IMG/VR virus record: IMGVR_UViG_3300032282_000936
Location: 1 to 22,554 of that record
Direction: 5' to 3' (one strand)
Length of the DNA stretch: 22,554 nucleotides
Origin: a virus
How positions within the stretch are numbered: the stretch's first letter is position 1; every line of letters begins with the position of its first letter. Under the pieces are notes generated by a model that saw only the letters and a program-made list of their open reading frames with translations, made no database searches and was not told where the DNA came from. Positions 3,444-21,658 of this stretch are shown one piece after another. Both the position numbers and the translations under genes were made by a program.

Positions 3444-3748
3444 CTCCCGTAAGAGAGACACTATATCAAGATAACGAAGTGCATTTTTTATGTGACTATA
3501 TTATCAACAAAACAAAAGTAGCCATGCACTTAAACATCACGCCGGGGGCGTGGTCACCCTCAAGATTTAAACGGTATAAGGCTATCTTTTTTCAGCAAGT
3601 TGTGCCTTATTTGAAAGACAAACAATACGGCGAAGTGTATGCTACACCCTTTGAAAACGACGTAAAAGCTCAGAAGCTCATAACGATGTTTGGGTTGAAA
3701 GAATTTGATAGAAAGTCAGGCTGTGTCTTGATGAAACGGGAGATTTAA
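3440..3748 (+). CDS. Small virion-module protein with possible acetyltransferase-like C-terminus
   Basis: The 102-aa product lies between a tail protein and a likely ejection protein, overlapping the previous gene by ATGA and ending 1 nt before the next. Its second half (QYGEVYATPFENDVKAQKL, ITMFGLKEFDR) has the pattern of the last strand, helix and strand of a GNAT fold, in which a surface Asn is followed by a helix and a Gly turn. It is too short to be a complete, active acetyltransferase. T7 gp13, a small internal virion protein next to the ejection proteins, also has an acetyltransferase-like shape, so a similar assembly role is possible. It may instead be an unrelated small structural protein. 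The coding call is firm from packing and composition. Confidence 0.5.
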   Translation: MTPVRETLYQDNEVHFLCDYIINKTKVAMHLNITPGAWSPSRFKRYKAIFFQQVVPYLKDKQYGEVYATPFENDVKAQKLITMFGLKEFDRKSGCVLMKREI

Positions 3749-3749
3749 C

Positions 3750-5504
3750 ATGCCAGCACTATTACCCGCAGTTGGTGTCGAAGCACTATTTGCTTCTTCT
3801 ACCGCCGCTTTGTCTGCCGCTGAAATTGCAGCCGCCGCTCAAGCTGCCGCTGCCGCTGCCCAAACCGCCGCCGCTACTACCGCTGCTACTACCGCTGCCA
3901 CAACTGCTGCTACCGCTGCTCCTGCTGTTGAAGCTGCTGCTACGCTCCCGGGGATTCTTCCTGAGGCTACTGGGATTCTTCCTGAAGCAATGGGGGGAGC
4001 GCAAGGAATTATGTCGGGCGGTGCGGCACCAGCCGCCGTAGAAGCTGGCACACAGGCAGCAATGCAACAAGCGCAAGTGCAAGCGTTGGGACAAGGCGCT
4101 CAAGGTAGTGGCGAACTACTACAAGGTTTAGACGCAGCAAAGTTTGATGCTGTTACCGGGCAGGCGGGAGTACCTCAGAATGCTTATGTTTATAATTCTC
4201 CTGCTTCTGCACCTTCTGTAACTGCACCTTCTGTAACTGCACCCCCCGCGGCTCCACCTCCCGCAGCTCCACCTCCCGCAGCTCCACCTCCTTATGTTCC
4301 TACCCCTCCCGCTCCCCCAATTGAAACCGGTAACGTTATACCCCAAGCTCCTGTTCAGCAATTTGGCGTTCCACAACCTGAGCCAGATATTTTAAGCGGC
4401 GGTGCTGGCCCAGTTAAACCAGAATCCGCGTTACTAAAAGGCGGCAATAACGCCATGCAGATGCTAGGCAAAATGGCGGGCAACATATCAGATTACGCTA
4501 AAGAGAACCCAATTACTTCTCTTGGTGGGGTGTTGACTGCGCAAAAGCTGGGTATATTTGGCGGTAATAACAGCGGGGGTACACCTAAAGATAAATACGA
4601 ACGTACGCCTTACTCTGGATTGTCACCTAACTTTGCTTCTACTGAATCAGGCGCTTACCGTCAACCCGGTGGCGCTAGCCCATACTTGTACGGCTTTGCT
4701 GACGGTGGCCCGGTTGAGCAGATGTCTAATATGAACGCTGGGATTATGCCTACTACGGGGCAAAACAATATGTACCCCATGTCCCAGCAAAAACCACTTG
4801 CTTACGCTAACCCAGCTATTCAAAACCCTATATCGCAAAACGTAATAGACGTAGGTGCTTCTAATAGTCTTGATCCTTATTCTGGTATGCCCGCGTTTTC
4901 TGAAGGTGGTTCTACATACGACGATGATAAAGAAGCTGCAAAAACCGCAGCAATGCGCAAACGCTATTCTAAAATGATGGGTGATAACTCAAACATGGAA
5001 GATAACGTATCTGAAATGAAATCTGCTGTAGCAAGAGCGCAAAGCAAATCAGGAATAGTAGGGCATGGCATTGAAAATTTAAGTCAAGCCGCAGGGCCAG
5101 CAGCGGTAAATGAATTAGAAAAAATGATGAAGAAATACAAAATTACATCTTCAATGCCTAAAATGCTTACCCCTGATAGTGGAAGTATGGAGTACGCAGC
5201 AAGTGGCGGCATCATGCACGGTCTAGGAGGGTACTCAGATGGTGGAAGGTTACTTAAAGGCCCCGGTGATGGTGTTAGTGATTCTATCCCAGCTACTATT
5301 GGTAATCGTCAGCCTGCTCGTCTTGCTGACGGAGAGTTTGTCATTCCCGCACGAATTGTTTCTGAACTGGGGAATGGCAGCACGGAAGCAGGAGCTAGAC
5401 AGCTCTACGCAATGATGGAACGTATACAGAAGAACCGTAAGAAGTCTGTAGGTAAAGGTAAAGTAGCTGTTGACTCCAAAGCTAAAAAACATCTACCCGC
5501 ATAA
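3750..5504 (+). CDS. Ala/Pro/Gly-rich internal virion (putative DNA-ejection) protein
   Basis: The 584-aa protein starts 1 nt after the previous stop, behind GGGAG seven nt upstream. Residues 15-75 are almost entirely Ala, Thr and Gln; residues of about 150-195 are a Pro/Ala repeat (APPPAAPPP); then come Gly-rich stretches. Several Gly-Gly motifs recur (FADGGPVEQM near 315, FSEGGSTYDD near 382, SGGIMHGLGG and YSDGGRLLKGPG near 483-503). The C-terminus carries GPGDGVSDSIPATIG and LADGEFVIPARIVSELGNGS (about 500-545), a module found at the ends of many phage tail and ejection proteins whose function is unknown. The last 25 residues are Lys-rich. Low complexity, place in the operon and the C-terminal module point to an internal or ejected virion protein; this is inference, not a fold match. 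Confidence 0.55.
   Translation: MPALLPAVGVEALFASSTAALSAAEIAAAAQAAAAAAQTAAATTAATTAATTAATAAPAVEAAATLPGILPEATGILPEAMGGAQGIMSGGAAPAAVEAGTQAAMQQAQVQALGQGAQGSGELLQGLDAAKFDAVTGQAGVPQNAYVYNSPASAPSVTAPSVTAPPAAPPPAAPPPAAPPPYVPTPPAPPIETGNVIPQAPVQQFGVPQPEPDILSGGAGPVKPESALLKGGNNAMQMLGKMAGNISDYAKENPITSLGGVLTAQKLGIFGGNNSGGTPKDKYERTPYSGLSPNFASTESGAYRQPGGASPYLYGFADGGPVEQMSNMNAGIMPTTGQNNMYPMSQQKPLAYANPAIQNPISQNVIDVGASNSLDPYSGMPAFSEGGSTYDDDKEAAKTAAMRKRYSKMMGDNSNMEDNVSEMKSAVARAQSKSGIVGHGIENLSQAAGPAAVNELEKMMKKYKITSSMPKMLTPDSGSMEYAASGGIMHGLGGYSDGGRLLKGPGDGVSDSIPATIGNRQPARLADGEFVIPARIVSELGNGSTEAGARQLYAMMERIQKNRKKSVGKGKVAVDSKAKKHLPA
3951..3992 (+). repeat. Two tandem 21-nt units in the Ala-rich virion gene
   Basis: GGGATTCTTCCTGA begins at 3951 and again at 3972, in frame, giving a repeated GILPEA peptide (GILPEATGILPEAM). 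The second copy differs in the last few bases, suggesting an in-frame duplication that has since diverged. Confidence 0.85.
4209..4238 (+). repeat. Two tandem 15-nt units encoding APSVT
   Basis: GCACCTTCTGTAACT occurs twice without mismatch (4209-4223 and 4224-4238), in frame, encoding APSVT twice just before the proline-rich stretch. Confidence 0.88.
4251..4291 (+). repeat. About 2.7 tandem 15-nt units encoding a Pro-Ala linker
   Basis: GCTCCACCTCCCGCA is present at 4251 and 4266, with a partial third copy from 4281, encoding repeated APPPA. The exact copies suggest recent in-frame slippage in a flexible linker of the virion protein. Confidence 0.88.
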
Positions 5505-5506
5505 CT

Positions 5507-5914
5507 ATGGCTTTATACCAAGTACACCCAAACGAATTATCTAAAATTTGGCTTATTGCAGCGCCAATGCTACAAAGAGCAATTGATCTTGACCCTAGTT
5601 TAATAACTATAGAACAAGTTGAATACGCGGTAAGAACAGGACGTACGTTTTTATTAGTGTGGGATGAACCGGAAGAAGGTATAACCGGCGCAGTTACTGT
5701 AGATATTATTGACTATCCGCGTGAGCGTGTAGCGCATGTAAATTTAATGGGTGGTAAAGGCATAGTCCGCACTCATGTATTTGACGAAGCTAAAAACTGG
5801 ATGCGCCTAATGGGCGCTACTACCGCACAATGTTGGGCTAAGGGAACCCTAGTCCAGATGTATGAAAAAATGGGCATGACCAACACCCATCAGGTAATGA
5901 GGACAGAATTATGA
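5507..5914 (+). CDS. GNAT-fold-like small protein of the ejection module
   Basis: The 135-aa protein lies between the 584- and 909-aa virion genes and overlaps the latter by ATGA. Its secondary-structure pattern fits a GNAT N-acetyltransferase fold: N-terminal helices (LSKIWLIAAPMLQRAIDLD), a strand pair around FLLVWDEPEEGITGAVTVDI, a turn at about residue 84 (LMGGKGIV) where the family would bind the acetyl-CoA pyrophosphate, a helix (VFDEAKNWMRLMG), and the final MYEKMGMTNTHQV. The pyrophosphate loop is not a clean consensus, so catalytic activity is doubtful. T7 gp13, encoded beside the ejection proteins, is a comparable small protein with this kind of fold and acts in virion assembly. I infer an assembly or chaperone role; a true acetyltransferase is the alternative. 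Confidence 0.55.
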   Translation: MALYQVHPNELSKIWLIAAPMLQRAIDLDPSLITIEQVEYAVRTGRTFLLVWDEPEEGITGAVTVDIIDYPRERVAHVNLMGGKGIVRTHVFDEAKNWMRLMGATTAQCWAKGTLVQMYEKMGMTNTHQVMRTEL

Positions 5915-8640
5915 ATATCTTTAAATGGTTGTTTAACCCCGACTGGTTTACCTTTGGTATGGGTGGCGGTGGTGGCGGCCCAAACACGACTTATTCTCAA
6001 ACCTCTAACATCCCTGAATACGCTCGCCCCTACGTTGAGCAAATGCTTGGTGCTACACAAAAGCAGTTATTTACAGGTACAAGCGATGCTAAAGGTAATT
6101 TTACGCCTACTGGGTTTAATAATTTTACCCCTTACGGCGCTACGTACCAAAAAGATGCGCAAGGTAACCCGTTAAGAGACTCAAGCGGAAACATTTTATT
6201 TACCAACACAGCGCAACAACAAGCTCAAGCCGCTGTGGCCCCCGTTAGTGCTGGTCAGCAAATGGCTACTAACACAATTAACCAGTACTTAGCGCCTTCA
6301 CAAACTCAAGGGGCTACTTCTATTGCTGGGGATATAGCAGGGCGTTCGGCTGCTAGTGGTTATTACTCGCCTTTACAGGCTGAGCGGTTCCAGCTTGGTA
6401 CACCACAACAAGTGCGTACTGACTCGTTCACGGCTCCGGGTGTATCTCAAGCGTATATGTCGCCGTACATGCAGAACGTAGTTAACACTCAACAGCGTGA
6501 AGCTGCTCGTCAATCGCAAATCCAACGTAACCAAAACCAAGCTCAAGCAGCTAGCCAAGGCGCTTTTGGTGGTTCACGTCAAGCTATTGTTGAAGCAGAA
6601 CGCCAACGTAATCTTGGTACGCAACTTGGCGATATTCAAGGTGCTGGGTTACAGCAAGCGTACGGTCAAGGCATGGGGCAGTTTAATGCTGAACAAGCTG
6701 CGTACCTTCAAGCCCAACAAGCTAACCAAGGCGCAAATCTTAATGTAGCTACTCAAAACCTACAAGCTCAGCAGCAAGCACAAGCTGCGCAAGAAGCATC
6801 ACGTCAGTTTGGCGCTCAGTTAGGACTGCAAGGTTACGGTCAAAGTTTGCAAGCAGCACAAACGCTTGGTCAGTTAGGCCAACAGCAGTACGGTCAAGAC
6901 ATGGGCACTATTCAAGCTATGGCTGGTCTGGGTGCACAAGAGCAAGCACAAACACAAAACATCATCAACCAAGCAATGCAAAACTATGGCACTGCGCAAC
7001 AGTACCCACTGATGCAACTTGGCGTGATGTCAAATATGCTGCGCGGTCTGCCTATGCAATCGTCAACAACCAACATGTACCAAGCTCAACCTTCGATGGC
7101 GTCTCAAATAGCTGGAGGGGTAGGAACTGGTCTAGGTCTGTATCAGCAAGGTCAACAAGCTAAGCTGTTTAAAGAAGGTGGCATAGTTAAAATGGCTGGT
7201 GGTGGCGCTACAGGTGTGCCTGCTGGCAAGCTACAAGCTGCTTTTAGAGGGCCTAGTTTTGACGACAAAGAGCTTGGGATGAAAGCACAAGATGCAAGTG
7301 ACCCAGTAACTCAAGCGGCTGCGGCAACTGAAATGGCACGTCGCGCTAGGTTACGCGCCGGTGCTCCGGTGATGGCAGCTAACGGCGGCATTGTTGCTTT
7401 TAAAGGTGGTAAAAAAGTTAAAGGCCCTAAGGTTAGCGACGTATACCCAGAAGAGTTTGAACGCGGTTCGGCTAAAGGTATTGCCCAAAATTCTGTTCCA
7501 GACGAAGCACCTACACAAGACGCTGCACCTACACAAGACGTTGCACCACAAGGTGATCCAGAGAAAGCTGCGTTGTACGGTAATGAAGGTTATACGGGGG
7601 TTGTACCTAAAGGCATAACTCCTGCTAAGCCTACGTACGAAGAGACGTTAGAACAGCAGATTGCTAACTTAACAAAGTCACAAGAAAAGTTAGATACGGA
7701 TAGGAATTTGTCTGTTACAGACAGAATGAAGCAGCAAGAAGCTGAACGTGAAAAGATGGGTCTTCCTTCGCCTTACGGTAGTGAGCTGGAGAAAAATAAA
7801 AAACGACGTGAGAAAGTAGACGAAGACTCCGTGCAAGAAGCGAGAGAAAATTTGACTATGTTCTTACAACGCTGGGGTACTACGCCCGGTACTACTTTAC
7901 TTGCTATGAACAAAGCAGGTATGGAGATGGTAGAGAAATCAGGTCTTGATCGTAAAGCGCGGCGTAAACTGCTTGACCAACTAGATGGTGTAGAGAGGGA
8001 TTTGCGTACGGGTGAGTATCAGCGTCGTCTTGGCGAAGAAGAAAGAGCGCGGGGGCATATTGAGAAAGCTGGTAAAGAGTACAACCAAGTTGGCGAGAAG
8101 ATCGTTGAGTACACGGTTAAGCTTATCAACAACGAAGCTACTAATGCAGCAAGAGAAAAAATAGCTGACTTAGCGCAAAAGTTGCAACAAGCAAAAATTG
8201 ACGGCAAAGAAGTGTCCGACTATAAAACACGATTAAACATTATTGCTGGTGAGTTAAAGTCAAACCCTAAGTTTAAAGATGTGCCTGAAGCTATGATACT
8301 AGCCTCAGCAGACAAAATAGTTCGGGCGCATGAAATTACTAAACAAGCCGCTGGTGCTGCGCAGTCCGTGCCTGTTAAAGAGCGCGAAGCTGATATACAT
8401 GGTGAAAAAGTAAACGCAGACATAGTTGATAAGGTTACCAAAACGGTTACTCGGGAATTAATGCTGCCGGGGCCTGTTAAAGATGAATACAAGTCATTAA
8501 AAACACCCGAAGACAAAGAAGCCTTTAGAAACAAATTGATCCAAAAACGAATTGGCGAAGCAAAGTCAGCCAATGTTTCTACGACTCAGCCTAGTACAAA
8601 TAGTGGTAAGGGTCAAGACTATAGCAAACTCTGGAACTAA
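5911..8640 (+). CDS. Gln/Ala-rich internal virion (putative DNA-ejection) protein
   Basis: The 909-aa protein opens with a hydrophobic patch and six glycines (GMGGGGGGPNTT). Residues of about 185-230 contain AYMSPYMQNVVNTQQREAAR and AASQGAFGGSRQAIVEAERQ, a signature of a family of phage virion proteins that I recognise without a fixed name. Residues 230-400 are a Gln/Ala-rich helical array (LQAQQQAQAAQEASRQFGAQ). Gly-Gly motifs follow (FKEGGIVKMAGGG near 420, AANGGIVAFKGG near 490). After an APTQD repeat near 533-545 the C-terminal 350 residues are charged, lysine/glutamate-rich and probably coiled coil. Composition and position between small GNAT-like and giant polyvalent proteins suggest an ejected inner-core protein comparable in role to T7 gp14/gp15; the exact role is inferred. 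Confidence 0.65.
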   Translation: MNIFKWLFNPDWFTFGMGGGGGGPNTTYSQTSNIPEYARPYVEQMLGATQKQLFTGTSDAKGNFTPTGFNNFTPYGATYQKDAQGNPLRDSSGNILFTNTAQQQAQAAVAPVSAGQQMATNTINQYLAPSQTQGATSIAGDIAGRSAASGYYSPLQAERFQLGTPQQVRTDSFTAPGVSQAYMSPYMQNVVNTQQREAARQSQIQRNQNQAQAASQGAFGGSRQAIVEAERQRNLGTQLGDIQGAGLQQAYGQGMGQFNAEQAAYLQAQQANQGANLNVATQNLQAQQQAQAAQEASRQFGAQLGLQGYGQSLQAAQTLGQLGQQQYGQDMGTIQAMAGLGAQEQAQTQNIINQAMQNYGTAQQYPLMQLGVMSNMLRGLPMQSSTTNMYQAQPSMASQIAGGVGTGLGLYQQGQQAKLFKEGGIVKMAGGGATGVPAGKLQAAFRGPSFDDKELGMKAQDASDPVTQAAAATEMARRARLRAGAPVMAANGGIVAFKGGKKVKGPKVSDVYPEEFERGSAKGIAQNSVPDEAPTQDAAPTQDVAPQGDPEKAALYGNEGYTGVVPKGITPAKPTYEETLEQQIANLTKSQEKLDTDRNLSVTDRMKQQEAEREKMGLPSPYGSELEKNKKRREKVDEDSVQEARENLTMFLQRWGTTPGTTLLAMNKAGMEMVEKSGLDRKARRKLLDQLDGVERDLRTGEYQRRLGEEERARGHIEKAGKEYNQVGEKIVEYTVKLINNEATNAAREKIADLAQKLQQAKIDGKEVSDYKTRLNIIAGELKSNPKFKDVPEAMILASADKIVRAHEITKQAAGAAQSVPVKEREADIHGEKVNADIVDKVTKTVTRELMLPGPVKDEYKSLKTPEDKEAFRNKLIQKRIGEAKSANVSTTQPSTNSGKGQDYSKLWN
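7507..7539 (+). repeat. Two 15-nt copies on an 18-nt period encoding APTQD
   Basis: GCACCTACACAAGAC occurs at 7507-7521 and 7525-7539, separated by one codon, giving APTQDAAPTQD in the linker of the 909-aa virion protein. It marks a flexible linker between the Gly-Gly motif region and the coiled-coil half. Confidence 0.85.
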
Positions 8641-8642
8641 AC

Positions 8643-11600
8643 ATGGCTAAACCGTGGAGTGAAGTATCAGGTAGCGAAGCATTTAAAGGCTTATCTGATG
8701 CCGAAAAAGAATCTGCTCGTCAACAATACTTTGAGCAGGTGGTAGCTCCACGCGTACCTAAAGCAGACTTATCCATAGCACGGGATCAATTCCTAAGCCA
8801 AACTGCGTTTAAGCCCAAAGAGCAAGACAAGAAATCCCTCGCGGACAAAGTATTTACCGCTGCACAAGATGTTAACGCAAGTGTTGTTTCGGGTGTTGGT
8901 TCATTAGTGCAAATGCCGGGGCAGGTGTATGGCCTTACTACAGGTGATTTTTCAGACACGGGTTTATTAAAAGCTGGTCGGCAAATGAAAGAACATGCCG
9001 AAACAATGAAGTCTGAAGAATTTAAAGGCAAAGAAAAAGCACGTTCAGCAAAAATACGTGAAGCAGAAAAAGAAGGCGTATACGAAGCCGCAAAAACAGC
9101 TTTTGCAGAAACTGTTAAAGACCCAACACTTTTACTTAATTTTGTAGCAGAACAGCTACCTAATTTGTTACCCGGTATGGCTGTAGGTCGTGCGCTTGGT
9201 GCCGCTGGTATGACTGCTGGTGCAGTACGAGGTGCAGTTGCTACGGGTGCAGTTCAACAAGGTTCTGATGTAGGTGCGCAGTCGTACGTAGAATTGCAAA
9301 AAGAACTTGTTAAACGCGGTATACCTGAAGCCGAAGCGTCAGCACAAGCGTTGGGGCTTGCACGTAAAGTGGGTGCTGGGGCAGCGGTTATATCTTTAAT
9401 ATCGCAAAAGCTGCCGGGCTTAGCTGGGCTTGAAGGCGAAGCTCTTGAGAAGTTGATGGCGGGTGCAGTTAGTAGTTCGGCTAAGAAAGGTATTGTTGCT
9501 ACAACTAAGCGGGCAGCTAAAGCAGGGCTAGGTGAAACCGCCAGTGAGATGATTGAAGAAGGTGGCGGTAAAGTTGCTCAAAATATAGCTGCACAACAAG
9601 TAGACCCAACTCGCAAACTTACTGACGGTCTAGGCGAAGCTATGGGTATGGCTGCTGTTGGCGGCGTTACTATGGGATCAACTGCTGGAGCATTGCAAAA
9701 AACTGCACCTGAAGCCGCAACACCTGAACGCATTGAACCAACACTTAACGCACCTACACCCGTTGCACCTGCGGCAACAGCGCAGCCCCAAGCTCCAGCC
9801 AACCCGCAAAGAGACGAACTTGTACAGTCGTACATAAAACAAGGCATGGCTCCTGACGATGCTGCTTTAATAGCAGATCGAGAATTTGCCGCGCTTACAA
9901 CTTCACCAGAAGCAACAGTGCAACCAGTGGCAGATGCCGCTAAAGCAGTGGAGGCCCAAAATGTTACTAGCTCCAGCACCCAGCCCGTACTTGATGGCGC
10001 TCAATCAACAACAGATCAGTCTGGCACTGGAGTGCCTAGCGCACCAACAGATACCGCCGCAGGAGCTACTGACCCTCTCACTAGCGGATTGGCTGATGCT
10101 GAGCGCGTTGCTAGAAAATTTGCTAGTGGAGAAACAGAACAGCGTACTGCACTAAAACCTCCAGTAGAAGCACTTACGCCTGAGCTTCCGTATGAAGCTG
10201 CGCAAAAAATACTTAATGCTCTTGAGAACCGTGACAAGTACATGGTTATGGAGACAGAGAATGGGTTTGTAGTTACGCCTAAGCGCGATCAAACTACTGC
10301 ACCAGCAACAACGCAAGTAAAAACGCCCATTGATGACATTGCTCCTCCCCCTCCTACCGGCCTTACGATTATGGACGGAGATAACACACGCGTTGTTACT
10401 GAAGACGAAGCAATACGTCTGGCAGAAGAAAAACAATTAAGGGATGAACAAGACAAACAAGACGTAACACCTACACCTACTGAAGTTATAACGGAGGAAC
10501 CTAGTGTCGCTAAAACCACTGAAGCCATCGAAGCAGAAGCGCAAAGACAAGAAGAACCCGCAGCCGACGAATCCGCACCCGCAGTAGCTAGCGCTGAAGA
10601 AGCTGATGCCATCTTAGCGGGTACTGAACAAGCAGAGGCAGACATCAAAGCATCTATTGATGAAGGCAAAGTTGTGCAAGAAGATAAAACAGCTAAATAT
10701 GAAAAGTCAAATGCTGCCAAAAAATTAAACAACATTACCAAACAACAGATAGCGCTAGCTGACAAGTTGATCCTTATGATCTCGGACTTGAAGCGGGTGT
10801 CTAACTTTGCCGACAGGCATACTAATTACAAAAACTTTGCGGCTATTGATGTGCGTTATACAGCGGCTAGGGATGAGTTAAACAATTTACTAAACTACTT
10901 TGAAGACTTATCTACTAAAGGTACAGCAGAACCGCATAAGGCTGCTAAAGCGTACCTAAAAACATTAGACACTAATTTAGACGAACACATCAAAGGCATT
11001 AAACAACGTGCTGAAGAAGGCAGAAAAGCTAGAACAGAAGATGAAGCTATAAAAGCTAGAGAGAAAGCGGAGCCTGTAAGCGCTGAAGAAACTAAAGAAG
11101 CTAAAGAAGATCGACGGGTTGAGAAAGCAGCAGAGGTAAAACAAGCTGCCGAGTTTAAATCACGCTTAGATGCATACATAGACGAAGAAGATAAGGTTGC
11201 GCTTGCCAAACACTATGGCGAGAAAGCGTACAACCAAATTGCCGAAAACAAATTTATTGCTGACATAAACACAGTCAACGACGAAGGGTTGGGTAGCGTA
11301 TCTCCTGTTGTGCAAGACATCATTAAGTCTATTAACCCTGATGTTAGTAAACAAATTGTTAATAAATCAAAATTTGATCTTGGTTCTCGCGCCGATAAAC
11401 TTTTAGCCGCGCTTGCAGAAGGGCTGATTCCACAACGCCTTAGAAGAAACTTTCCTAACCCTGAGTTTAATAAAGCCAAGTCTTTAATCAGAGCGTTAGA
11501 AATGGTTACTAAGGACACTACGAATAACACTACGTACGATATTTTAATAGCTGACTATTTGTTAAGCCCACAAAACATTAAGTCTATAAATGATATTACG

Positions 11601-14600
11601 TTAAGCGTAATAGAAGACAACGATAAAAAAGGGTTAAAAGAAGCCGGTAAAGCATTTAGAGATGCGCGAGGTATGTATGTATTAAGCCCTGACGGAGAAC
11701 CACATATATACCTGCGGGGCGAAAGTTTTGGTTTTGAAGACCAAGGCATTAACACGCTTACAGTGTTGCATGAAGGGCTGCATGGCGCAGGTAACCAAAA
11801 GATCAACCTTGTACAGCTTGCGAGAAAATATAAGTTCACGGACAAAGTGCCTTCAGATTTAATAGAAGCCGTTGAAGGTTTAGAGCGGCTAATGGAACGT
11901 GCTAAAGGAGTGTACGAAGCAGGTTCACGGAATAAAGAGATACAAACTAGGTTAGACAGCTTAGCCAGAGGTGGCGCGTTTGAAGATGTAAAAGAGTTCT
12001 TTACGTACGCTATGACCACACCTAGCATGCAAGAGTTTTTGCAAACTGAAGTAAAAGGCGAAGTAACTAAGACATCTGGCTTTAGTAGGTTTATTGAACT
12101 CGCTTTAAAGTTGTTGGGTGTAAACCCTGAGCTTCACACGGGGCTTAAAGATTTATTTGTTTACTCCGACGTAATCATCAAAGAAAAAGTAGCTAAACAA
12201 AACGTACAAGAAATAGCCAAGCTACTGTCTGCGGAAAAAGCAAAACTATATAGCCAAGCCAAAAAACAAAAATCTACTTCACAAGATGCCGAGCGCAAAC
12301 TAGAAGCTGCTAGACGTCAAACACAAATTGTAGAAGATATGGGTTCGCTATTGAACGTAGCAAAGAACCCTGCGTTGTGGCCTGACTATATTAGACTTAA
12401 TTTCCGCAACATAGCTGCTCCTGCGTATAAAGGGTTGCTAAAGTCTTTGCCTACTAACGTAATCATAGACACAGGCACTGCGCTTGGTATTGGTGGGTTG
12501 ACAGATGTAAATGCTAACGTGCAGAAGATGTACACGTACCGCACTCAAGAATTACAAAAGGTACAAGACACCGCTGTGCCTTGGATAAAACTTGATGCGC
12601 CTATGCAAGCGAAGCTAGCAGAAACTATGCACTACGCTACGGATGTGCAAATAGACCCAGATAAAACGTCGGGTAAAGACCCTGAGTTGGATAGGCGTTG
12701 GAATGCGTTAAGTAGCGATGCTAAAGAAGTTTATCGCAAGGTGCGCGACTTCTATACAAATAAATACAAGCTATACCGCGCTTTGCTTGAGCAACGTGTT
12801 AACGACGTGACTACTGATCCCGCAGAACGTAAGCAGTTAATGGACTCTATCAAGGCTACCTACGGCGATAAAAACATGGAGCCGTACTTCCCATTCATGC
12901 GTTATGGTGAATACTGGGCAAGCGTTGGTAATAAAGAGAGTAAAGAATTTCACATGTTTGAGTCGCCGGGACAACGTGATTTATTTCTTGAGCGTCGTGT
13001 TAAAGAGCTAAACCTCAATGGTGATAACCGCACACTTGCAGAGATGATGGAGGGCGAAGATATTCGTGCAGGTAATGACGTAGATAGTTTGCGTGAAGAT
13101 GCTGCAAACGAAAGCGCCAACTTAAAAGAAATGTTTGCCACTATCGACGGAATGAAAACTAGTAGCGATACAGAAAAGTCCCGTCTTAAGGATGAGATAT
13201 TTCAAATGCACTTGTTGACGTTGCCAGAAGCATCGTTCCGTAAACAGTTCATCCATCGTAAAGGTACGGCTGGTTTTAGTGGCGATGCACTACGCAACTT
13301 TAATGAAGCAAGCTCACGAATTGTTAACCAAATATCACGCGTTAAGTATGGCCCTAAAATTAATGTAGCCATGAGCGCTGCAAATGATTCTTTAGCTGGT
13401 AACCCCGATCAAGCTAAGCTAGGCATGATTACACGGGAGATAGAACAACGCCTCAAAGAAGAACTTGCTCCTGAGTTTAAAGACGACGCGTTAGACAAAG
13501 CTGCACGTACTGCTAACAAAGCAGCGTTTATTTGGCTTCTTACTTCTGTTAAGTCCGCAGCTAACCAAATGTTTAGCGTGGTTAGTTTTACGATGCCTAC
13601 TTTAGCTAAGTACCACGGCTGGGGCGCTACACTTAAAGAAATGGGCAAGATGTCTGCTGTGTGGAATGAAGTAGGTGCTACACGTACAGACAAGAACGGT
13701 AACGTAACTTTTATACCGTCGGTCAGTATTGCGCACTCTAAAGCGTTAAAACTAAACCCTATAGAGCAACGTGCTTATCAAGTCATGGTTGACCGTGGCG
13801 TATCTGACGCTACACGTACTTATGATTTGTTTATGCGTAAAGGTGCGCCAAGTGCAGACTACAATAACAAACTAGCTAACGCTGTTAAAGCTATGGGGAC
13901 TTTGTTTCACGCAACCGAACGCTTGTCTCGTGAGATTTCGTATATGGCTGCGTTCCGGTTAGAGATGAAAAAACATGGTGACTTTGACCGCGCAACTGAA
14001 AAAGCAATGCACGTAGTTAACGAAGCTTTGTTTGATTACTCTACATGGAATGCACCACGCGTAATGCGCTCAGCCCCAGCCAGAGTTGCTACACAGTTTA
14101 TGAAATTCCCAATGTTCGTAACCATCTATCTAGCACGTAACTTCCGTGCAATGATGAAGCCTATGGATGGCGAAACTAGAGCGGGAGCGTTTAAAGCTTT
14201 TACTGGTACGTTGGGTATGACTACGTTGCTAGCTGGCACTTCTGGGTTGTTTATGTACAGCGCTGTTTTTGGTGTGCTACAAGCAATGCGTAACGCTATG
14301 CGGGATGACGATGATCCTGTACCTATGGAAGAAGAAAACTTAGAACGATGGTTCCGCAAAGTATGGTTGCCTGAAACTTTTGGTGAAGTAAAAATAATGG
14401 GTAAAGGGTTAGATGACATTATAGACACCGGAGTATTGAATGCAGCTACTGGGCTTGATTTTGCTAGCGGGTTATCGTTAAATAATATGTGGTTCCGCGA
14501 CGCGCCTGAAGCTAGCTCGTGGAAAGATGCGTACGCTCAAAATGCTACTGCTTTCTTTGGAGGCCCTGCTTATGGTCTTGGTGAATCATGGGCAACGGGT

Positions 14601-15125
14601 ATTGACGATATAAACAAAGGCGACACATTAAAAGGAATGGAAAAGTTAACCCCTGCATTATTCCGTGGGGGTCTTACTGCTCTTCGTTACAGTAATGAGG
14701 GTGCAGTTTCATCTATAGGTAGTCCTATAAAAAGTATGGATGAATTTACTTATTGGCAGTTAGCCGCGCAGGTAGCAGGGTATAAATCAACAGGTATGGC
14801 TAGATTAACTGAAGATAACTTTGCTATTACCCAACAGATGAAACAAATCAACGGTCAGCGTTCTAAATTGTTAGGTGATCTTAACCGTGCTGCGGTTATG
14901 GATCGTGAGTCTGATTTTGAAAAAGCGGTTGATAATGTTGTTAATTTTAATATTAAATACCCAACAAGAGAAATAGAAATGGATGATATTGATAACGCGA
15001 TAGACCGTCGAATTGAAATGCTTTCAAACAGTAATCGTGGTGTGTATGTTCCAGACGATTTCTTACAACTTGAAGTGCTACGGGAACGTAGCTTAGAAAG
15101 AATAGAAAGCGAAGCCGCGAAATAA
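8643..15125 (+). CDS. Giant polyvalent virion/DNA-ejection protein with HEGLH metallopeptidase motif
   Basis: At 2160 aa this is the largest gene. The N-terminus (AKPWSEVSGSEAFKGLSD, then ARQQYFEQVVAPRVP) is a signature of phage polyvalent proteins, which are packaged and enter the cell with DNA. Residues of about 160-350 form Gly/Ala-rich hydrophobic helices plus ETASEMIEEGGGKVAQN, likely membrane-active. Residues 350-700 are Ala/Pro/Glu linkers; 700-870 are charged helices. An HExxH site, HEGLH at 1043-1047 preceded by INTLTV, with E1118 in VKEFFTYAM as a possible third ligand, suggests a zinc metallopeptidase. Near 1412 is EPYFPFMRYGEYW, conserved in such proteins. Residues of about 1610-1900 resemble the LPD38-type C-terminal domain (FIWLLTSVKSAANQ; VATQFMKFPMF), with a hydrophobic helix at about 1855-1880. 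I see no lytic transglycosylase motif, unlike T7 gp16. Confidence 0.75.
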   Translation: MAKPWSEVSGSEAFKGLSDAEKESARQQYFEQVVAPRVPKADLSIARDQFLSQTAFKPKEQDKKSLADKVFTAAQDVNASVVSGVGSLVQMPGQVYGLTTGDFSDTGLLKAGRQMKEHAETMKSEEFKGKEKARSAKIREAEKEGVYEAAKTAFAETVKDPTLLLNFVAEQLPNLLPGMAVGRALGAAGMTAGAVRGAVATGAVQQGSDVGAQSYVELQKELVKRGIPEAEASAQALGLARKVGAGAAVISLISQKLPGLAGLEGEALEKLMAGAVSSSAKKGIVATTKRAAKAGLGETASEMIEEGGGKVAQNIAAQQVDPTRKLTDGLGEAMGMAAVGGVTMGSTAGALQKTAPEAATPERIEPTLNAPTPVAPAATAQPQAPANPQRDELVQSYIKQGMAPDDAALIADREFAALTTSPEATVQPVADAAKAVEAQNVTSSSTQPVLDGAQSTTDQSGTGVPSAPTDTAAGATDPLTSGLADAERVARKFASGETEQRTALKPPVEALTPELPYEAAQKILNALENRDKYMVMETENGFVVTPKRDQTTAPATTQVKTPIDDIAPPPPTGLTIMDGDNTRVVTEDEAIRLAEEKQLRDEQDKQDVTPTPTEVITEEPSVAKTTEAIEAEAQRQEEPAADESAPAVASAEEADAILAGTEQAEADIKASIDEGKVVQEDKTAKYEKSNAAKKLNNITKQQIALADKLILMISDLKRVSNFADRHTNYKNFAAIDVRYTAARDELNNLLNYFEDLSTKGTAEPHKAAKAYLKTLDTNLDEHIKGIKQRAEEGRKARTEDEAIKAREKAEPVSAEETKEAKEDRRVEKAAEVKQAAEFKSRLDAYIDEEDKVALAKHYGEKAYNQIAENKFIADINTVNDEGLGSVSPVVQDIIKSINPDVSKQIVNKSKFDLGSRADKLLAALAEGLIPQRLRRNFPNPEFNKAKSLIRALEMVTKDTTNNTTYDILIADYLLSPQNIKSINDITLSVIEDNDKKGLKEAGKAFRDARGMYVLSPDGEPHIYLRGESFGFEDQGINTLTVLHEGLHGAGNQKINLVQLARKYKFTDKVPSDLIEAVEGLERLMERAKGVYEAGSRNKEIQTRLDSLARGGAFEDVKEFFTYAMTTPSMQEFLQTEVKGEVTKTSGFSRFIELALKLLGVNPELHTGLKDLFVYSDVIIKEKVAKQNVQEIAKLLSAEKAKLYSQAKKQKSTSQDAERKLEAARRQTQIVEDMGSLLNVAKNPALWPDYIRLNFRNIAAPAYKGLLKSLPTNVIIDTGTALGIGGLTDVNANVQKMYTYRTQELQKVQDTAVPWIKLDAPMQAKLAETMHYATDVQIDPDKTSGKDPELDRRWNALSSDAKEVYRKVRDFYTNKYKLYRALLEQRVNDVTTDPAERKQLMDSIKATYGDKNMEPYFPFMRYGEYWASVGNKESKEFHMFESPGQRDLFLERRVKELNLNGDNRTLAEMMEGEDIRAGNDVDSLREDAANESANLKEMFATIDGMKTSSDTEKSRLKDEIFQMHLLTLPEASFRKQFIHRKGTAGFSGDALRNFNEASSRIVNQISRVKYGPKINVAMSAANDSLAGNPDQAKLGMITREIEQRLKEELAPEFKDDALDKAARTANKAAFIWLLTSVKSAANQMFSVVSFTMPTLAKYHGWGATLKEMGKMSAVWNEVGATRTDKNGNVTFIPSVSIAHSKALKLNPIEQRAYQVMVDRGVSDATRTYDLFMRKGAPSADYNNKLANAVKAMGTLFHATERLSREISYMAAFRLEMKKHGDFDRATEKAMHVVNEALFDYSTWNAPRVMRSAPARVATQFMKFPMFVTIYLARNFRAMMKPMDGETRAGAFKAFTGTLGMTTLLAGTSGLFMYSAVFGVLQAMRNAMRDDDDPVPMEEENLERWFRKVWLPETFGEVKIMGKGLDDIIDTGVLNAATGLDFASGLSLNNMWFRDAPEASSWKDAYAQNATAFFGGPAYGLGESWATGIDDINKGDTLKGMEKLTPALFRGGLTALRYSNEGAVSSIGSPIKSMDEFTYWQLAAQVAGYKSTGMARLTEDNFAITQQMKQINGQRSKLLGDLNRAAVMDRESDFEKAVDNVVNFNIKYPTREIEMDDIDNAIDRRIEMLSNSNRGVYVPDDFLQLEVLRERSLERIESEAAK

Positions 15126-15212: not shown

Positions 15213-15407
15213 TCATATTCTCCACACTCGCACACCTCTGATACTGTTCTCGATTACACACTTGGAAACCACGTTGTACTTAAGCCTATTTGTTACGCGC
15301 TTAATTTCTTCGGTTGCACTTGGGCAATGTAAGCAAGGGATGAAAAACGAATGCCCTTTCTTAAATTGCTTCCAGTTAATTTGATACAGAACTCCCGCTA
15401 CCTTCAT
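15213..15407 (-). CDS. Small conserved-type phage protein, function unknown
   Basis: The 64-aa product (MKVAGVLYQINWKQFKKG, HSFFIPCLHC...RGVRVWRI) is the last gene of the minus-strand module. I chose the internal ATG at 15407 rather than the one at 15425, because GGAG lies 7 nt upstream of it and nothing SD-like precedes the outer one. Its start overlaps the last 32 nt of the primase gene. The pattern W-x-x-F-K-K-G-x-S-F-F-I-P followed by a basic helix and an ending IRGVRVWRI recurs in small proteins of phage replication modules that I have seen annotated only as hypothetical. Cys residues at CLHC could bind metal, but one pair is not enough to claim it. A DNA- or protein-binding accessory role is guesswork. 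Confidence 0.75.
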   Translation of the reverse strand: MKVAGVLYQINWKQFKKGHSFFIPCLHCPSATEEIKRVTNRLKYNVVSKCVIENSIRGVRVWRI

Positions 15408-18219
15408 CTTCTTTCTCCACACCAACGTATGCGTCTACGTTAATGAACTCAGGCGCGTTACAATCAAAATGCATGACGTGAACGGGTGTACCTTTAATCT
15501 TAGTGCCGCTAGTCATACGCCTTGTAGTGCTACCTAGATAAATACCTTTGGTCTGTAACTGCTTCATAGTTTCTTTGTAGTTGAGTTGCCGCTCTACGCA
15601 GTCATCCTTAAACGCCTTAGCCACAATGTACATCTGCTTGGTATCAGGCTCATACCGTATTATTAACTCACCATACGGCTCTTGGATTGGTGCGGGTAAG
15701 AGCTTAGTCCGGGCGTCTGCTTCACCGTCTACCACTAGCGTGTTACGTATATGGCGGTTGATGAAATCACCTACTACGCTTGATGGGTCGTCTCTTGGTG
15801 CGGTGCTATCTTCGCGGATGTCACGAATCATGCCGCATGCCCACTTGTATATAGCCTTCATGTCGTAGTCGTGCAGACCTAGCGACTTGGCAATCAAGCC
15901 GCCCATGATGTTACATGCAACAACACCCGACCAGAACCGTTCCCGCTGGCTAAGGCGCAACTCCTTGTCTATCTTGGCTTGCACTTCTAATAGCTGCTGC
16001 ACGGCTTCTTCTTTGTGCCCCACTAGCCACTGTGCATAGATGTCACCTGCATGCCCATAGTTTTCTAACAGTTGATGGTCAAACATACGCTTGCCTTCTT
16101 CGGTAGAGATAGCATCGCTGTAGCCGATTGTGTACTCCATCAAACGCATCATCTCGCCGTCAGGCGTGTTCTTAAGGCTACCAAGCTTCTCGTAAAAACT
16201 AGAGTTACCGCTGGACAAGGTTATGTTCTGCCACTTCGTGTTGTTCTTGCGTAGCTTGTTAACTCCCGCCTCTACCCTGTTCTTGCCCCGCCCTTGTGAC
16301 ATAGCGTAGGTCAGGTCAGAGAACTCGTCAGACTTCATGTTGGTAATCTCGTCCATCGTGAACGGTAGATTGTTCATAACGCCTAGCATGTGCATACGGG
16401 CATTCATAGTGTCCTTCGGTATAGCCACTAAGTCCTTGGGGTGTCCGTACACGCTGTTCGCCATAAACAACGCTGTAGACTTACCTGAACCTGAGTGCGG
16501 AAACATGACGTTAATGATAGCCCCGCTAAGCCCAACAAACTTAAGTAAGGGTGAGCCAAACGCAGTAAGTGCAGCAAACGCATTAGGCTCTAGTCCGGGT
16601 CGTGAGTACATGTTAAATACTTCTTTCCACTTCTCTAACGTACCCTTAGCCACCATGTGTTGCGCTATGCTTTCGGTGTGGGAGGAAGGGGGGCTGTAAT
16701 ACACCCCGTCTGCGGTGATCTCTCTGTCACCAATAATAAACTTGCTGTCTGTGTCAGCCCAGCCAAACTGCGTTCTCATAAGCTCTGCTCTCCTTGTTAG
16801 TTGTATATCCTTCGCGCAGGAAAGTAAAAATCCTACGATGTTGTCCATCTGCTGACCACGGGCTAACACACCGTTTTCACCTAAAAACTTCTTCGGCTCG
16901 TCCTTACCAATTAATGCACTTGCTGGTATGGCAAACTCTTTAACCCCATCTCTAGGTAGATGCAGCCGCATCAACGCCATCTCGCCTTTCTCAGGGTCGG
17001 TCATACGCTTGAGTACAAACAGGTCATGCTCATAGATAAGTACGGCGTCATCGTCCTTTCTTTCCATGTAGATGCCGCCTGTCTTGCCACGGAAGTATGG
17101 ATAAGGGAAAGCTGGCACTTTGTAAGAAACAACCTCCTCTTCCTCCTCAGCTTCAACCTCGTACACACCCTCTTCAGTCGGCTCAGCTTGCGCTATCTCT
17201 TTACCTAGTACGATAGGTGTAGTGATCTTGCCCTTGTGTATACAACCAATACACCCGTCGGGGTTCTCCTTCTCAAACGTCTCACAGAAGTGCGGCCCAC
17301 CTTTACGCTGTAGGTCATGCACCTTGATTTCGACTTCGTCGGGGTCATAGCCGGGGTACTTCTCTGACATCTTGTGCGCAGCCGATGCTCCCTCCTCACA
17401 AAATGCCGTGATAGATAAGGCGCTACGCCATAGGTTGTAAGAAATAGTGTCTTGGTTCTGGAAGCAATGGACTAACTGTTTGCAACCTTCGCCTTGCGCC
17501 GACTTCATCATTATGGTTTTGAAGCGGGAGATACGGTTGCCCATCAGGGATAAAGTCAAGGCACTTCGTTGTATCTGCCTTCTTGGAGCAAACTTCTTAT
17601 CCGTAACACCTAATGTTAGACGTAGCTCAGCAGGCTCACTTACATTACCACCTACAGCTATTACAGTAACTGGAGACGGTGGCGTATCCTTAAAGTTATA
17701 CGTATTTGGTACACGCAGTATCCGTGCTGGTTCAAAGCACTTGGGGTCTGCTGTAAGGCTGTGAATTTTACATAGCTCAGCCAGACGATCCATCATCGGT
17801 TGCCAGCGGTCTTTGCCGATAACCTCAGTGAACGCCCAGTAAGCATGTATGCCACGGCCTGAGTTAATTAGTATGGGCTTGGGTAGCCCAATTGTCTTAC
17901 AGAAGCGTTGCAGTTCCTGTAGTCCAGTAGCTTGGTCTATATAGCCTTCACCGGATGCAGCCTTATCTTCTCCGCAGTCAATGTCCACCCACAATGCTTT
18001 GAAGTACTTTGCATTGTCGCCTGTGCGGTTATCTCCTGTTTCGTACTTGGCGCAGCCAAAGTACACGTCGCGCTCTTCTTCGAGCATGTCTTGTACTAGC
18101 TCATTTACCTCTTCTCTAGTCTCTACAAGGTGCTGCCTCGTCTTCTTGTTCTTGATGCCTACGACTGCGTACCACCCTTGGGGGGCAAGCACAGCATCTA
18201 AAAGGTCGAAGTCAGCCAT
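15376..18219 (-). CDS. AEP-type primase fused to an AAA+ (DUF927-like) helicase
   Basis: The 947-aa protein combines priming and unwinding at the phage fork. The N-terminal archaeo-eukaryotic primase domain shows catalytic D79 and D81 in WVDID, SGRGIHAYW at 120-128 with H125, and D158 with PARILRVPNTYNFK at 164-177. A likely zinc cluster follows: C311, C322, C325 and H327. After an acidic linker (about 350-365, EAEEEEE) the C-terminal ATPase has a Walker A PHSGSGKST at 573-581, Walker B LPFTMDE at 617-623, a sensor strand QNITLSSGNSSF (663-674) and R691 as possible arginine finger. This resembles the DUF927 helicase group. The start has only a weak SD (GAGATAAG) and lies 16 nt beyond an intrinsic terminator, so low expression is expected. 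Whether the primase domain also polymerises DNA cannot be told. Confidence 0.88.
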   Translation of the reverse strand: MADFDLLDAVLAPQGWYAVVGIKNKKTRQHLVETREEVNELVQDMLEEERDVYFGCAKYETGDNRTGDNAKYFKALWVDIDCGEDKAASGEGYIDQATGLQELQRFCKTIGLPKPILINSGRGIHAYWAFTEVIGKDRWQPMMDRLAELCKIHSLTADPKCFEPARILRVPNTYNFKDTPPSPVTVIAVGGNVSEPAELRLTLGVTDKKFAPRRQIQRSALTLSLMGNRISRFKTIMMKSAQGEGCKQLVHCFQNQDTISYNLWRSALSITAFCEEGASAAHKMSEKYPGYDPDEVEIKVHDLQRKGGPHFCETFEKENPDGCIGCIHKGKITTPIVLGKEIAQAEPTEEGVYEVEAEEEEEVVSYKVPAFPYPYFRGKTGGIYMERKDDDAVLIYEHDLFVLKRMTDPEKGEMALMRLHLPRDGVKEFAIPASALIGKDEPKKFLGENGVLARGQQMDNIVGFLLSCAKDIQLTRRAELMRTQFGWADTDSKFIIGDREITADGVYYSPPSSHTESIAQHMVAKGTLEKWKEVFNMYSRPGLEPNAFAALTAFGSPLLKFVGLSGAIINVMFPHSGSGKSTALFMANSVYGHPKDLVAIPKDTMNARMHMLGVMNNLPFTMDEITNMKSDEFSDLTYAMSQGRGKNRVEAGVNKLRKNNTKWQNITLSSGNSSFYEKLGSLKNTPDGEMMRLMEYTIGYSDAISTEEGKRMFDHQLLENYGHAGDIYAQWLVGHKEEAVQQLLEVQAKIDKELRLSQRERFWSGVVACNIMGGLIAKSLGLHDYDMKAIYKWACGMIRDIREDSTAPRDDPSSVVGDFINRHIRNTLVVDGEADARTKLLPAPIQEPYGELIIRYEPDTKQMYIVAKAFKDDCVERQLNYKETMKQLQTKGIYLGSTTRRMTSGTKIKGTPVHVMHFDCNAPEFINVDAYVGVEKEDEGSGSSVSN
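15415..15418 (-). promoter_or_regulatory. Shine-Dalgarno fixing the start of the 64-aa gene
   Basis: GGAG on the minus strand lies 7 nt before the ATG at 15407, inside the end of the primase coding region, and decides between two possible in-frame starts. Confidence 0.7.
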
Positions 18220-20098: not shown

Positions 20099-21658
20099 CT
20101 ATTTTGATTCTATTTCCTGCTTGTACAACTCAATTATTTTATTGTGGTTTACTATGTTGCCCCGAAGCATGGCGTACATTCGTCTTTCGACTTCACTACC
20201 TTTTATATGTACAACAGTCATCGCATTCTTTTGGCCCGGCCTGTCAATTCGTGCATTAGCCTGAAGATAGGTTTCAACACTAGTGACAGGGGCGTACCAG
20301 ATTACTACATTTGCTGCGGTTAGTGTCAACCCATGTGATGCTGCTTGGGGTTGAATTATCAAAACTTTAGTATCTTGGTTAGATTGAAACCTCTGAATAA
20401 TGTCATGCCTTTTGTTAACTGTTACTTGTCCGCTAATAACTTCACAGGTAATACCAGACTTAGTCAGATGCTCTTTCAATAAAGCTATCGTATGGGTGAA
20501 CGGTACAAATACCAGCACCTTGTGGCTAGCTTCTTCTATGACCTCTTGAACCACATTGAGACGGTTTGATACATCAAATTCAATTACTTGTTTATCGTCA
20601 GAATAAACCGCACCGCCCGATATTTGCAACAACTTATTTAGTTTTACTGCTGCGTTAACAGACGTAACATCTTCACCGTCTGCTGACATAATCATTTGCT
20701 GCTTAAGTATCTCGTAATACTTTCTTTGCTGAGGCGTTAAAGGTGCATCTCGTTCTACATACGTTACATCAGGTAAGTCTAAGCACTGTGATTTCTCAAA
20801 CCGTATAGCTGGTTGTAACGCGTTGTGCACAACAACTTCTGAATCTTTACGTGGTATCCAACGAAACTGACCAACCTTCTCCATTACCTTGTCACGGAAC
20901 TGACCATAGAACTTAGGTATACCATCAGGGTTGATTAGCTTAGCTAGACCATACGCATCTACAGGCGACTGCGCAGCGGGTGTACCTGTTAGCATCCACA
21001 ACCATGTATCAGGGGTAACCAACGTCTTCAATGCTTTCCAACGGTTAGTCTGTATGTTCTTGTACGCTGACGCTTCGTCTGTAACAATCAAGTCAAACCC
21101 ACCATTAGCAATCTCTTCCCTGACAATATCTACGCCATCAAAGTTAATGATGACAAACTCTGCATCACCCAACACAACCTTAGCGCGTTGCTCTTTCTTG
21201 CCATACGCTATGTCTACGCTTCTATGCACAGCGAACTTAAACAAGTCTGCTTGCCATGCTGACTTCATAATAGACAAAGGGCAGATGATAAGTACTCGGC
21301 GAATTAAGCCTAACTTTATTAAATAGTCAGCCGCCCATATAACTGCTGCTGTCTTACCTGTACCTTGCTCGTTAAAACAAAATGCTTTCTTGCGTAACGT
21401 CAAAAATGCTGCTGTCTCCTTTTGATGCTCGAACGGTTTGTGTAGTCCGGGCCAGTTGTAGTCTCTTGATATGGTGCTGGGTACGCCTTTGATCTTTAAG
21501 CTAGTAAGCTGTTGCGCTTCTTTAAGCCCAAAGAAAACAGCGACGTCGTGCAGCCCATCCGGTAGCCAACCGATGATCTTGCTCTTCTCAATCTTTTCGG
21601 TGACTAGATGTGGTCGTCTAGTTCTTATCACTATTACCTTATTGTTTACGATTTGCAT
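20099..21658 (-). CDS. SNF2-family (SF2) DNA helicase/translocase
   Basis: The 519-aa protein is a complete two-lobe SF2 ATPase. Visible motifs in order: Q motif region KPFEHQKETA (about 74-83), motif I EQGTGKTA (97-104), motif II DEAS (194-197), motif III LTGTPA (223-228), motif V ASHGLTLTAAN (about 440-450), and motif VI QANARIDRPGQ (467-476). The order, DEAx box, and R-x-x-R-x-G-Q closing motif are SNF2-type. Such phage enzymes remodel or unwind DNA and are often found beside nucleases in recombination modules. The gene follows the HNH-like gene with adjacent stop and start (TAAATG), so they are co-translated. No extra domain is present beyond the ATPase core and a short N-terminal extension. 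Confidence 0.93.
   Translation of the reverse strand: MQIVNNKVIVIRTRRPHLVTEKIEKSKIIGWLPDGLHDVAVFFGLKEAQQLTSLKIKGVPSTISRDYNWPGLHKPFEHQKETAAFLTLRKKAFCFNEQGTGKTAAVIWAADYLIKLGLIRRVLIICPLSIMKSAWQADLFKFAVHRSVDIAYGKKEQRAKVVLGDAEFVIINFDGVDIVREEIANGGFDLIVTDEASAYKNIQTNRWKALKTLVTPDTWLWMLTGTPAAQSPVDAYGLAKLINPDGIPKFYGQFRDKVMEKVGQFRWIPRKDSEVVVHNALQPAIRFEKSQCLDLPDVTYVERDAPLTPQQRKYYEILKQQMIMSADGEDVTSVNAAVKLNKLLQISGGAVYSDDKQVIEFDVSNRLNVVQEVIEEASHKVLVFVPFTHTIALLKEHLTKSGITCEVISGQVTVNKRHDIIQRFQSNQDTKVLIIQPQAASHGLTLTAANVVIWYAPVTSVETYLQANARIDRPGQKNAMTVVHIKGSEVERRMYAMLRGNIVNHNKIIELYKQEIESK

What the first reader, a model, noticed from the sequence alone, without database searches (positions are those of the whole stretch)
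11640..12050. Putative zinc metallopeptidase embedded in the giant ejection protein
HEGLH at residues 1043-1047 of the 2160-aa protein is preceded by a strand (INTLTV) and followed about 70 residues later by VKEFFTYAM with a candidate third ligand (E1118). Known polyvalent proteins carry enzyme domains into the cell with the DNA. A peptidase here could act on virion partners during maturation, on the host envelope during ejection, or on host proteins afterwards. I see no peptidoglycan hydrolase motif in the virion proteins, so it may replace the transglycosylase of T7 gp16.
Basis: partly seen in the sequence, partly recalled or inferred. Interest (0 to 1): 0.7.

Follow-up and report, generated by a model that had tools for sequence, protein, structure and literature searches.

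The report
Zinc peptidase in phage ejection protein
A giant phage protein, probably injected into the bacterium with the DNA, carries an intact-looking zinc-protease domain of a type already known from the injected RNA polymerase of phage N4; the same domain sits in hundreds of cultured phages, many of them labelled as having a cell-wall-cutting enzyme instead.

Summary
HEGLH is at residues 1043-1047 (window 11769-11783) of the 2160-aa protein, and the proposed third ligand E1118 is correct. In 35 non-redundant relatives H1043, E1044, H1047, E1118 and L1133 never vary. In a separate set found only through the C-terminal half of the protein, 69 of 72 evaluable relatives keep the domain, all with HExxH and E1118; the other three carry a different HExxH/HExxxH motif upstream of the same C-terminal module.

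AlphaFold2 gives a confident zincin-like fold (pLDDT 94.5). Its best solved matches are the C1 domain of phage N4 virion RNA polymerase, then M34-type catalytic domains (anthrax lethal factor, PPEP-2).

This is the zincin-like metallopeptidase of polyvalent proteins (Iyer et al. 2017), followed here by LPD39 and a DarB-like C-terminus: a new member of a known kind. Replacement of the T7 gp16 transglycosylase is not supported: one relative carries both domains, and phiKMV-type phages keep a lysozyme in the neighbouring protein.

By-product: the "endolysin/exotransglycosylase" domain named in phiKMV/KP34-type ejection proteins, including the PhiM1 cryo-EM structure, coincides with this zincin. 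Activity, zinc binding and substrate are untested.

The parts
8643..15125 (+). 2160-aa giant polyvalent/ejection protein
   Evidence: Open reading frame with ATG start; PHROG and Pfam domain matches
8643..10148 (+). N-terminal module, residues 1-502, resembling delivery modules: residues 1-123 match a 'DNA ejection protein' family, residues 121-502 match the N-terminal part of the N4-type virion RNA polymerase family
   Evidence: phrog_26400 E 1.3e-4; phrog_2206 E 1.7e-12 (profile 178-536); phrog_10089 E 2.3e-5. Ala-rich region, so moderate confidence
10323..11447 (+). residues 561-935: variable, charged linker region without family match
   Evidence: No PHROG match; 40% identity to L003 over residues 670-930 against 59% (zincin) and about 90% (C-terminus)
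11448..12230 (+). zincin-like metallopeptidase domain, residues 936-1196 (modelled)
   Evidence: AlphaFold2 pLDDT 94.5, pTM 0.92; VIA-align Z 8.2 to N4 vRNAP residues 2124-2372 and 7.2 to lethal factor 594-776; profile matches to solved ejection proteins
11769..11783 (+). HEGLH, residues 1043-1047: two putative zinc-binding His and the catalytic Glu
   Evidence: Invariant in all relatives tested that carry this domain; in predicted helix 1038-1062 (model residues 103-127)
11994..11996 (+). E1118, putative third zinc ligand
   Evidence: Invariant in 35 non-redundant members and in all 70 rows of the unbiased set; at the start of predicted helix 1116-1125
12435..12830 (+). LPD39, large polyvalent protein associated domain 39, residues 1265-1396
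   Evidence: PF18858, 40.4 bits against a cut-off of 27
12573..15083 (+). DarB-like C-terminal region, residues about 1311-2147
   Evidence: phrog_10089 'DarB-like antirestriction' E 3e-61, phrog_30335 E 1e-63; tblastn to PLxRFG/DarB-like proteins of 32 phage records
169..648 (+). separate 159-aa phage lysozyme (probably the lysis endolysin), the only peptidoglycan hydrolase recognised in the window
   Evidence: PF00959 E 3.1e-35; phrog_7 endolysin

Best explanation
Residues about 936-1196 are a zincin-like metallopeptidase domain of the phage polyvalent-protein type, in the group of the C1 domain of N4 virion RNA polymerase. H1043, H1047 and E1118 hold a zinc ion and E1044 activates the water (inferred from conservation and fold). 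The domain sits between an N-terminal delivery module and an LPD39/DarB-like C-terminal module in a protein packaged in the head and ejected with the DNA (inferred from family and gene context). The likely working step is after ejection: the protein is threaded out unfolded, refolds in the host, and the peptidase then either cuts its own polypeptide to free the C-terminal module or cuts a host protein. I lean slightly towards cutting in cis.
For: Sequence: HExxH and E1118 invariant across T7-like (Autographiviridae), N4-like (Schitoviridae) and uncultured phages. Sampling by the C-terminal module only: 69/72 evaluable relatives have the domain, all with HExxH and E1118; the other three have another motif (HESLGH, HEASH with a weak WLM match, HEQGVH), which suggests that a metallopeptidase as such is kept. 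Fold: confident model with three strands, then a helix with HExxH, then a helix starting near E1118; best solved matches N4 vRNAP C1, lethal factor, PPEP-2; viral library hits are virion RNA polymerases, large polyvalent proteins and a phiKMV-type core protein with TM 0.72. Delivery: N-terminal match to ejection-protein and vRNAP families; homologues lie inside the head in a solved structure (PMC11440229). Cis cutting: the domain lies a near-constant 214-249 residues before the C-terminal module in most of 69 relatives; prior proposal and the P1 DdrB precedent (PMC5512222).
Against: No activity or zinc has been shown for any member as far as I found. Recombinant full-length N4 vRNAP shows no degradation (PMC12633501), so self-cutting is not automatic. 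The distance between the three ligands in the model could not be measured. No curated Pfam model matches the window domain. Virion location of this protein is inferred, not shown. The domain evolves faster than the C-terminus (dN 0.28 against 0.06, but dS also higher, 1.25 against 0.65), which would also fit a changing host target or recombination.
Confidence: 0.75

Rival explanations
1. The peptidase cuts a host protein after ejection (an effector), rather than its own chain.
For: Best cellular fold matches are M34-type proteases that cut foreign or secreted proteins; faster divergence of this domain than of the C-terminus; N4 vRNAP is stable when made in full (PMC12633501).
Against: Near-constant position in the chain and occurrence in phages of very different hosts with the same few conserved residues do not point to one target.
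Confidence: 0.35
2. It works during head assembly, as a maturation protease that processes virion proteins or its own precursor, as suggested for P1 DdrB.
For: P1 DdrB with an MPTase domain is processed before packaging; the N4 region with the MPTase is required for encapsidation (both from PMC5512222).
Against: N4 vRNAP is packaged uncut (PMC5512222); the deposited ejection-protein chains of the PhiM1 and phiKMV-type entries correspond to the full-length gene products (1263 and 1337 aa), though this is the deposited sequence, not proof of an uncut chain.
Confidence: 0.15
3. A cell-wall hydrolase that replaces the T7 gp16 transglycosylase, or the 'endolysin/exotransglycosylase' of current annotations.
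For: No SLT in the window or in 13 related records; many homologues carry this label; PMC11440229 assigns residues 268-528 of PhiM1 gp48 so.
Against: Zincin fold and ligands; coexistence with a real SLT in one protein and with a lysozyme in the neighbour; phrog_342 is labelled after an endolysin domain, but LKD16 gp37 matches it only from position 168, past the SLT region that the Limnohabitans protein covers.
Confidence: 0.07
4. HExxH metal site with another chemistry (for example the alpha-ketoglutarate HExxH enzymes mentioned for N4 in PMC12633501), or a purely structural metal site.
For: The N4 authors leave this open; no proteolysis shown.
Against: The invariant second-helix Glu and the M34-like fold are those of peptidases; the catalytic E1044, not needed for a structural site, is never lost.
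Confidence: 0.08

Closest known systems
C1 domain of coliphage N4 virion RNA polymerase gp50 (residues 2124-2375; PDB 9pnt/9pnr)
   Same: Fold (Z 8.2 over 184 residues), HExxH and third Glu, central position in a giant ejected protein, similar N-terminal module
   Different: 15% identity in the structural alignment; N4 has an RNA polymerase before it and a different C-terminal domain; the window protein has LPD39 and a DarB-like region
Zincin-like MPTase domains of polyvalent proteins (Iyer et al. 2017, PMC5512222)
   Same: Domain layout (three strands, helix with HExxH, helix with Glu), association with LPDs in giant phage proteins
   Different: Not matched by the curated Pfam model MPTase-PolyVal PF18818
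PhiM1 tetrameric ejection protein gp48 (PDB 8vb2) and phiKMV-type internal virion protein gp37 (PDB 9sfn)
   Same: Profile matches E 5e-8 and 1e-38 with HExxH and Glu conserved
   Different: Domain named 'endolysin/exotransglycosidase-like' in PMC11440229; these proteins are T7 gp16-like, 1263-1337 aa, without LPD39
Anthrax lethal factor / PPEP-2 catalytic domains (peptidase family M34)
   Same: Similar fold over about 150 residues, Z 7.2 and 5.9; second His to Glu spacing 47-88 in the phage set, about 45 in lethal factor (own knowledge)
   Different: No sequence similarity found beyond the motif; rmsd 4-4.5 A; membership not claimed
T7 gp16
   Same: Place in the ejection machinery (inferred)
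   Different: Window protein has no SLT domain

Membership tests
Polyvalent-protein zincin-like MPTase (N4 vRNAP type) | HExxH in a helix after a three-stranded sheet | tested here: met
   Model strands 51-55, 75-79, 85-90, helix 103-127 with HExxH at 108-112
Polyvalent-protein zincin-like MPTase (N4 vRNAP type) | Invariant Glu in the next conserved helix | tested here: met
   E1118, 100% in 35 and in 70 sequences; helix 181-190 of the model
Polyvalent-protein zincin-like MPTase (N4 vRNAP type) | Profile and fold similarity to the N4 vRNAP C1 domain | tested here: met
   Profile E 6.7e-5 to 9pnr; Z 8.2; phrog_2206 E 1.3e-9 at profile 2097-2258
Polyvalent-protein zincin-like MPTase (N4 vRNAP type) | Setting in a giant multidomain phage protein with LPDs | tested here: met
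   LPD39 above cut-off, DarB-like C-terminus
Polyvalent-protein zincin-like MPTase (N4 vRNAP type) | Zinc binding and peptidase activity | not testable with these tools
   Needs protein; not shown for the N4 relative in the papers read
Pfam MPTase-PolyVal PF18818 | Match above the curated cut-off | tested here: not met
   No match at E up to 10 in the window
Large polyvalent protein, LPD39 family | PF18858 above cut-off | tested here: met
   40.4 bits against 27
T7 gp16-type ejection protein with lytic transglycosylase | N-terminal SLT domain | tested here: not met
   No SLT in the protein; positive control P0002 gives SLT E 9e-17
Peptidase family M34 (lethal factor, PPEP) | Fold and HExxH...E site of M34 | tested here: inconclusive
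   Z 5.9-7.2, within the range that can mean a common arrangement
Virion (ejection) protein | Presence in the virion and ejection | not testable with these tools
   Inferred from N-terminal family matches, neighbours and solved relatives

The most novel reading that the evidence does not exclude
One ejected zinc-peptidase module is shared by phiKMV/KP34-type, N4-type and uncultured aquatic podoviruses, its active site is practically never lost and it is sometimes swapped for another metallopeptidase, so ejection of a working protease is a general step of infection in short-tailed phages; the 'endolysin/exotransglycosylase' domain of phiKMV/KP34-type ejection proteins, including the PhiM1 cryo-EM structure, is this protease and not a cell-wall hydrolase.
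Probability: 0.6. Interest if true: 0.6.

Novelty: new member of a known kind. Interest (0 to 1): 0.42.

Why it matters
The domain type was recognised in 2017 and noted again in the N4 polymerase structure, so the window adds a member. The wider comparison makes an open question testable: whether short-tailed phages inject an active protease. It also suggests that a common annotation ('internal virion protein with endolysin domain', 'peptidoglycan lytic exotransglycosylase') names the wrong enzyme in many phiKMV- and KP34-type phages, some of them laboratory-tractable.

Tried and rejected
Close relatives by tblastn of the window domain: only one phage record, and a scan with peptide patterns from the window domain alone found none; the family opened up only through the Limnohabitans phage domain. 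Foldseek against PDB gave no significant hit (best E 0.27); the N4 match came from the second look by VIA-align. PF18818 gave nothing. Pfam scans of the 11 domain members gave only scattered weak matches, the most relevant being SprT-like (two members) and DUF6782, a putative metallopeptidase family (one member). The genome-contig scan found only one Zoogloea MAG contig, not followed. Rejected: chance motif; replacement of the transglycosylase. Proline-rich linker sites (residues 506 and 568) as PPEP-like cleavage sites were looked at but nothing supports them. Papers for PDB entries 9sfn and 23sg were not found.

Full report
Check of the observation. The window is the whole of a 22,554-base virus record. 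ORF 8643-15125 encodes 2160 aa. A shuffled copy of this protein contains HExxH in 1.2% of cases, so the motif alone is weak evidence; conservation decides.

Finding the family. tblastn with the window domain hit one phage record, Limnohabitans phage YIMV22061, whose 1576-aa gp16-like protein aligns HELIH with HEGLH and KEFITYGLT with KEFFTYAMT (31% identity, E 1e-9 in the pairwise comparison). That domain in turn hit 142 phage records, and the Providencia phage MTT version hit 366 (the two sets overlap). The records sampled include phiKMV-type gp37, KP34-type internal core proteins and N4-type virion RNA polymerases. All ten phage proteins first fetched keep HExxH, as do four more fetched later.

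Conservation. In the first alignment (11 sequences, all at 22-28% identity to the first) the only invariant columns are H, E, H, the Glu equivalent to E1118, one Leu and one Gly. Adding viral-contig relatives and reducing to 35 sequences below 70% identity leaves H1043, E1044, H1047, E1118 and L1133 invariant. HExxH was part of that search pattern, so its conservation there is not independent; E1118 was not part of it. To remove the bias I searched with the C-terminal module only (residues 1261-2160). Of 80 ORFs with that module, 8 are cut off before the domain; of the 72 others 69 have the zincin domain, all with HExxH and E1118. The three exceptions have a different motif upstream of the same C-terminal module: FHESLGHFGL (L133), VHEASHY with a weak WLM match (L116), LHEQGVHIGL (L141). 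The 2017 survey describes HExxxH forms among polyvalent MPTases (PMC5512222). That these three are metallopeptidases is inferred from motif and position.

Structure. AlphaFold2 on residues 936-1196 with 31 aligned relatives gave pLDDT 94.5 and pTM 0.92: strands, then a long helix with HExxH, then an insert of two helices, then a helix beginning two residues before E1118. Foldseek found nothing significant in the PDB. The second look ranked N4 vRNAP residues 2124-2372 first (Z 8.2, rmsd 4.5, 184 residues), then anthrax lethal factor residues 594-776 (Z 7.2) and PPEP-2 (Z 5.9). The Z values are moderate; the N4 match is backed by independent profile matches. The viral library gave 16 hits at E below 0.001, among them large polyvalent proteins, a virion RNA polymerase and a phiKMV-type core protein. 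The tool gives no coordinates, so the clustering of the three ligands is inferred from conservation and topology, not measured.

Setting. The N-terminal 502 residues resemble an ejection-protein family and the N-terminal part of the N4-type vRNAP family (the region is Ala-rich, so moderate weight). After the zincin come LPD39 and a DarB-like region. Relatives with the same layout are common in viral contigs, for example 35-37% identity to L044, L056 and L041. In 53 of 69 relatives HExxH lies within 400 residues of the C-terminal module (median of all 235, middle half 228-249); in the other 16 the distance is 932-1145. In the longer ones examined by Pfam (L021, L028, L090 and the L116 variant) a GHKL-type ATPase match lies in between; the others were not scanned.

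Against the transglycosylase idea. The Limnohabitans protein has an SLT domain (E 9e-17) and the zincin in one chain. LKD16 gp37 has the zincin and no peptidoglycan-hydrolase domain match in Pfam, while its neighbour gp36 has a lysozyme-type domain. No SLT was found in 13 related records of 44-66 kb; six have a separate phage lysozyme, like the window (169-648). So the window's group may lack a recognisable virion muralytic enzyme, but nothing suggests that the zincin does this job.

A likely mislabel in the literature. The PhiM1 ejectosome paper assigns residues Asp268-Asp528 of its tetrameric ejection protein gp48 to an 'endolysin/exotransglycosidase-like domain', found by BLASTP and DALI (PMC11440229). 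The same 1263-aa protein in the genome record (PhiM1_43; Asp268 and Asp528 fit the numbering) matches the zincin profile at 289-517, with HEAAH at 385 and the Glu conserved, and no Pfam domain. The label probably spread from annotation of the PHROG_342 kind, which covers T7 gp16-like proteins with an N-terminal SLT (the route is inference). I could not inspect the deposited coordinates.

Mechanism. Shown: conserved site, fold class, place in the chain. Inferred: zinc, peptidase activity, ejection with DNA. Iyer et al. proposed autoprocessing or host targets for such domains, and note that N4 vRNAP is packaged uncut (PMC5512222). Recombinant full-length N4 vRNAP shows no degradation (PMC12633501). 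Action after ejection is therefore the more likely timing. I put cis processing slightly ahead because the domain keeps its place next to the same module and is replaced by another metallopeptidase motif rather than lost, but host targets are nearly as likely.

Verdict. Interest is moderate, mainly because the comparison unites several well-known phage groups and questions a common annotation.

Noticed in passing
L116 residues 1148-1261 (ORF 3286-11904); also L021, L028, L090: A GHKL/Hsp90-type ATPase domain lies between the zincin and LPD39 in longer relatives of the window protein (and before LPD39 in L116), E 1e-8 in L116, weaker in the others.
   Followed up: partly
L133 residue about 1067, L116 about 1711, L141 about 759: Relatives without the N4-type zincin carry a different HExxxH or HExxH motif upstream of the same C-terminal module, as if one metallopeptidase was swapped for another.
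   Followed up: partly
L073 ORF 5631-12464 residues 811-1007 and 1083-1306; L006 residues 2129-2329 and 2370-2600 (stop-to-stop ORF numbering): Two copies of the zincin domain in one protein.
   Followed up: no
L171 7198-10989 (PhiM1_43) and phiKMV/KP34-type homologues (L005, L009, L012, L172-L174): The domain labelled endolysin/exotransglycosylase in the PhiM1 structure paper, and proteins so labelled in many phage records, coincide with the zincin.
   Followed up: yes
window 11448-12230 against 12231-15122, compared with L003: The zincin and the region before it are much more diverged (59% or less identity) than the C-terminus (about 90%), with a sharp step near residue 1197 and higher dS, which suggests recombination at that point.
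   Followed up: partly
window 15376-18219 (-) and 20099-21658 (-): Genes on the opposite strand encode a primase/helicase-like protein (947 aa) and a DNA helicase (519 aa).
   Followed up: no
L094 (Zoogloea sp. MAG contig): The only match in the bacterial genome collection, 30% identity over residues 87-220 of the query; possibly a prophage or phage contig.
   Followed up: no
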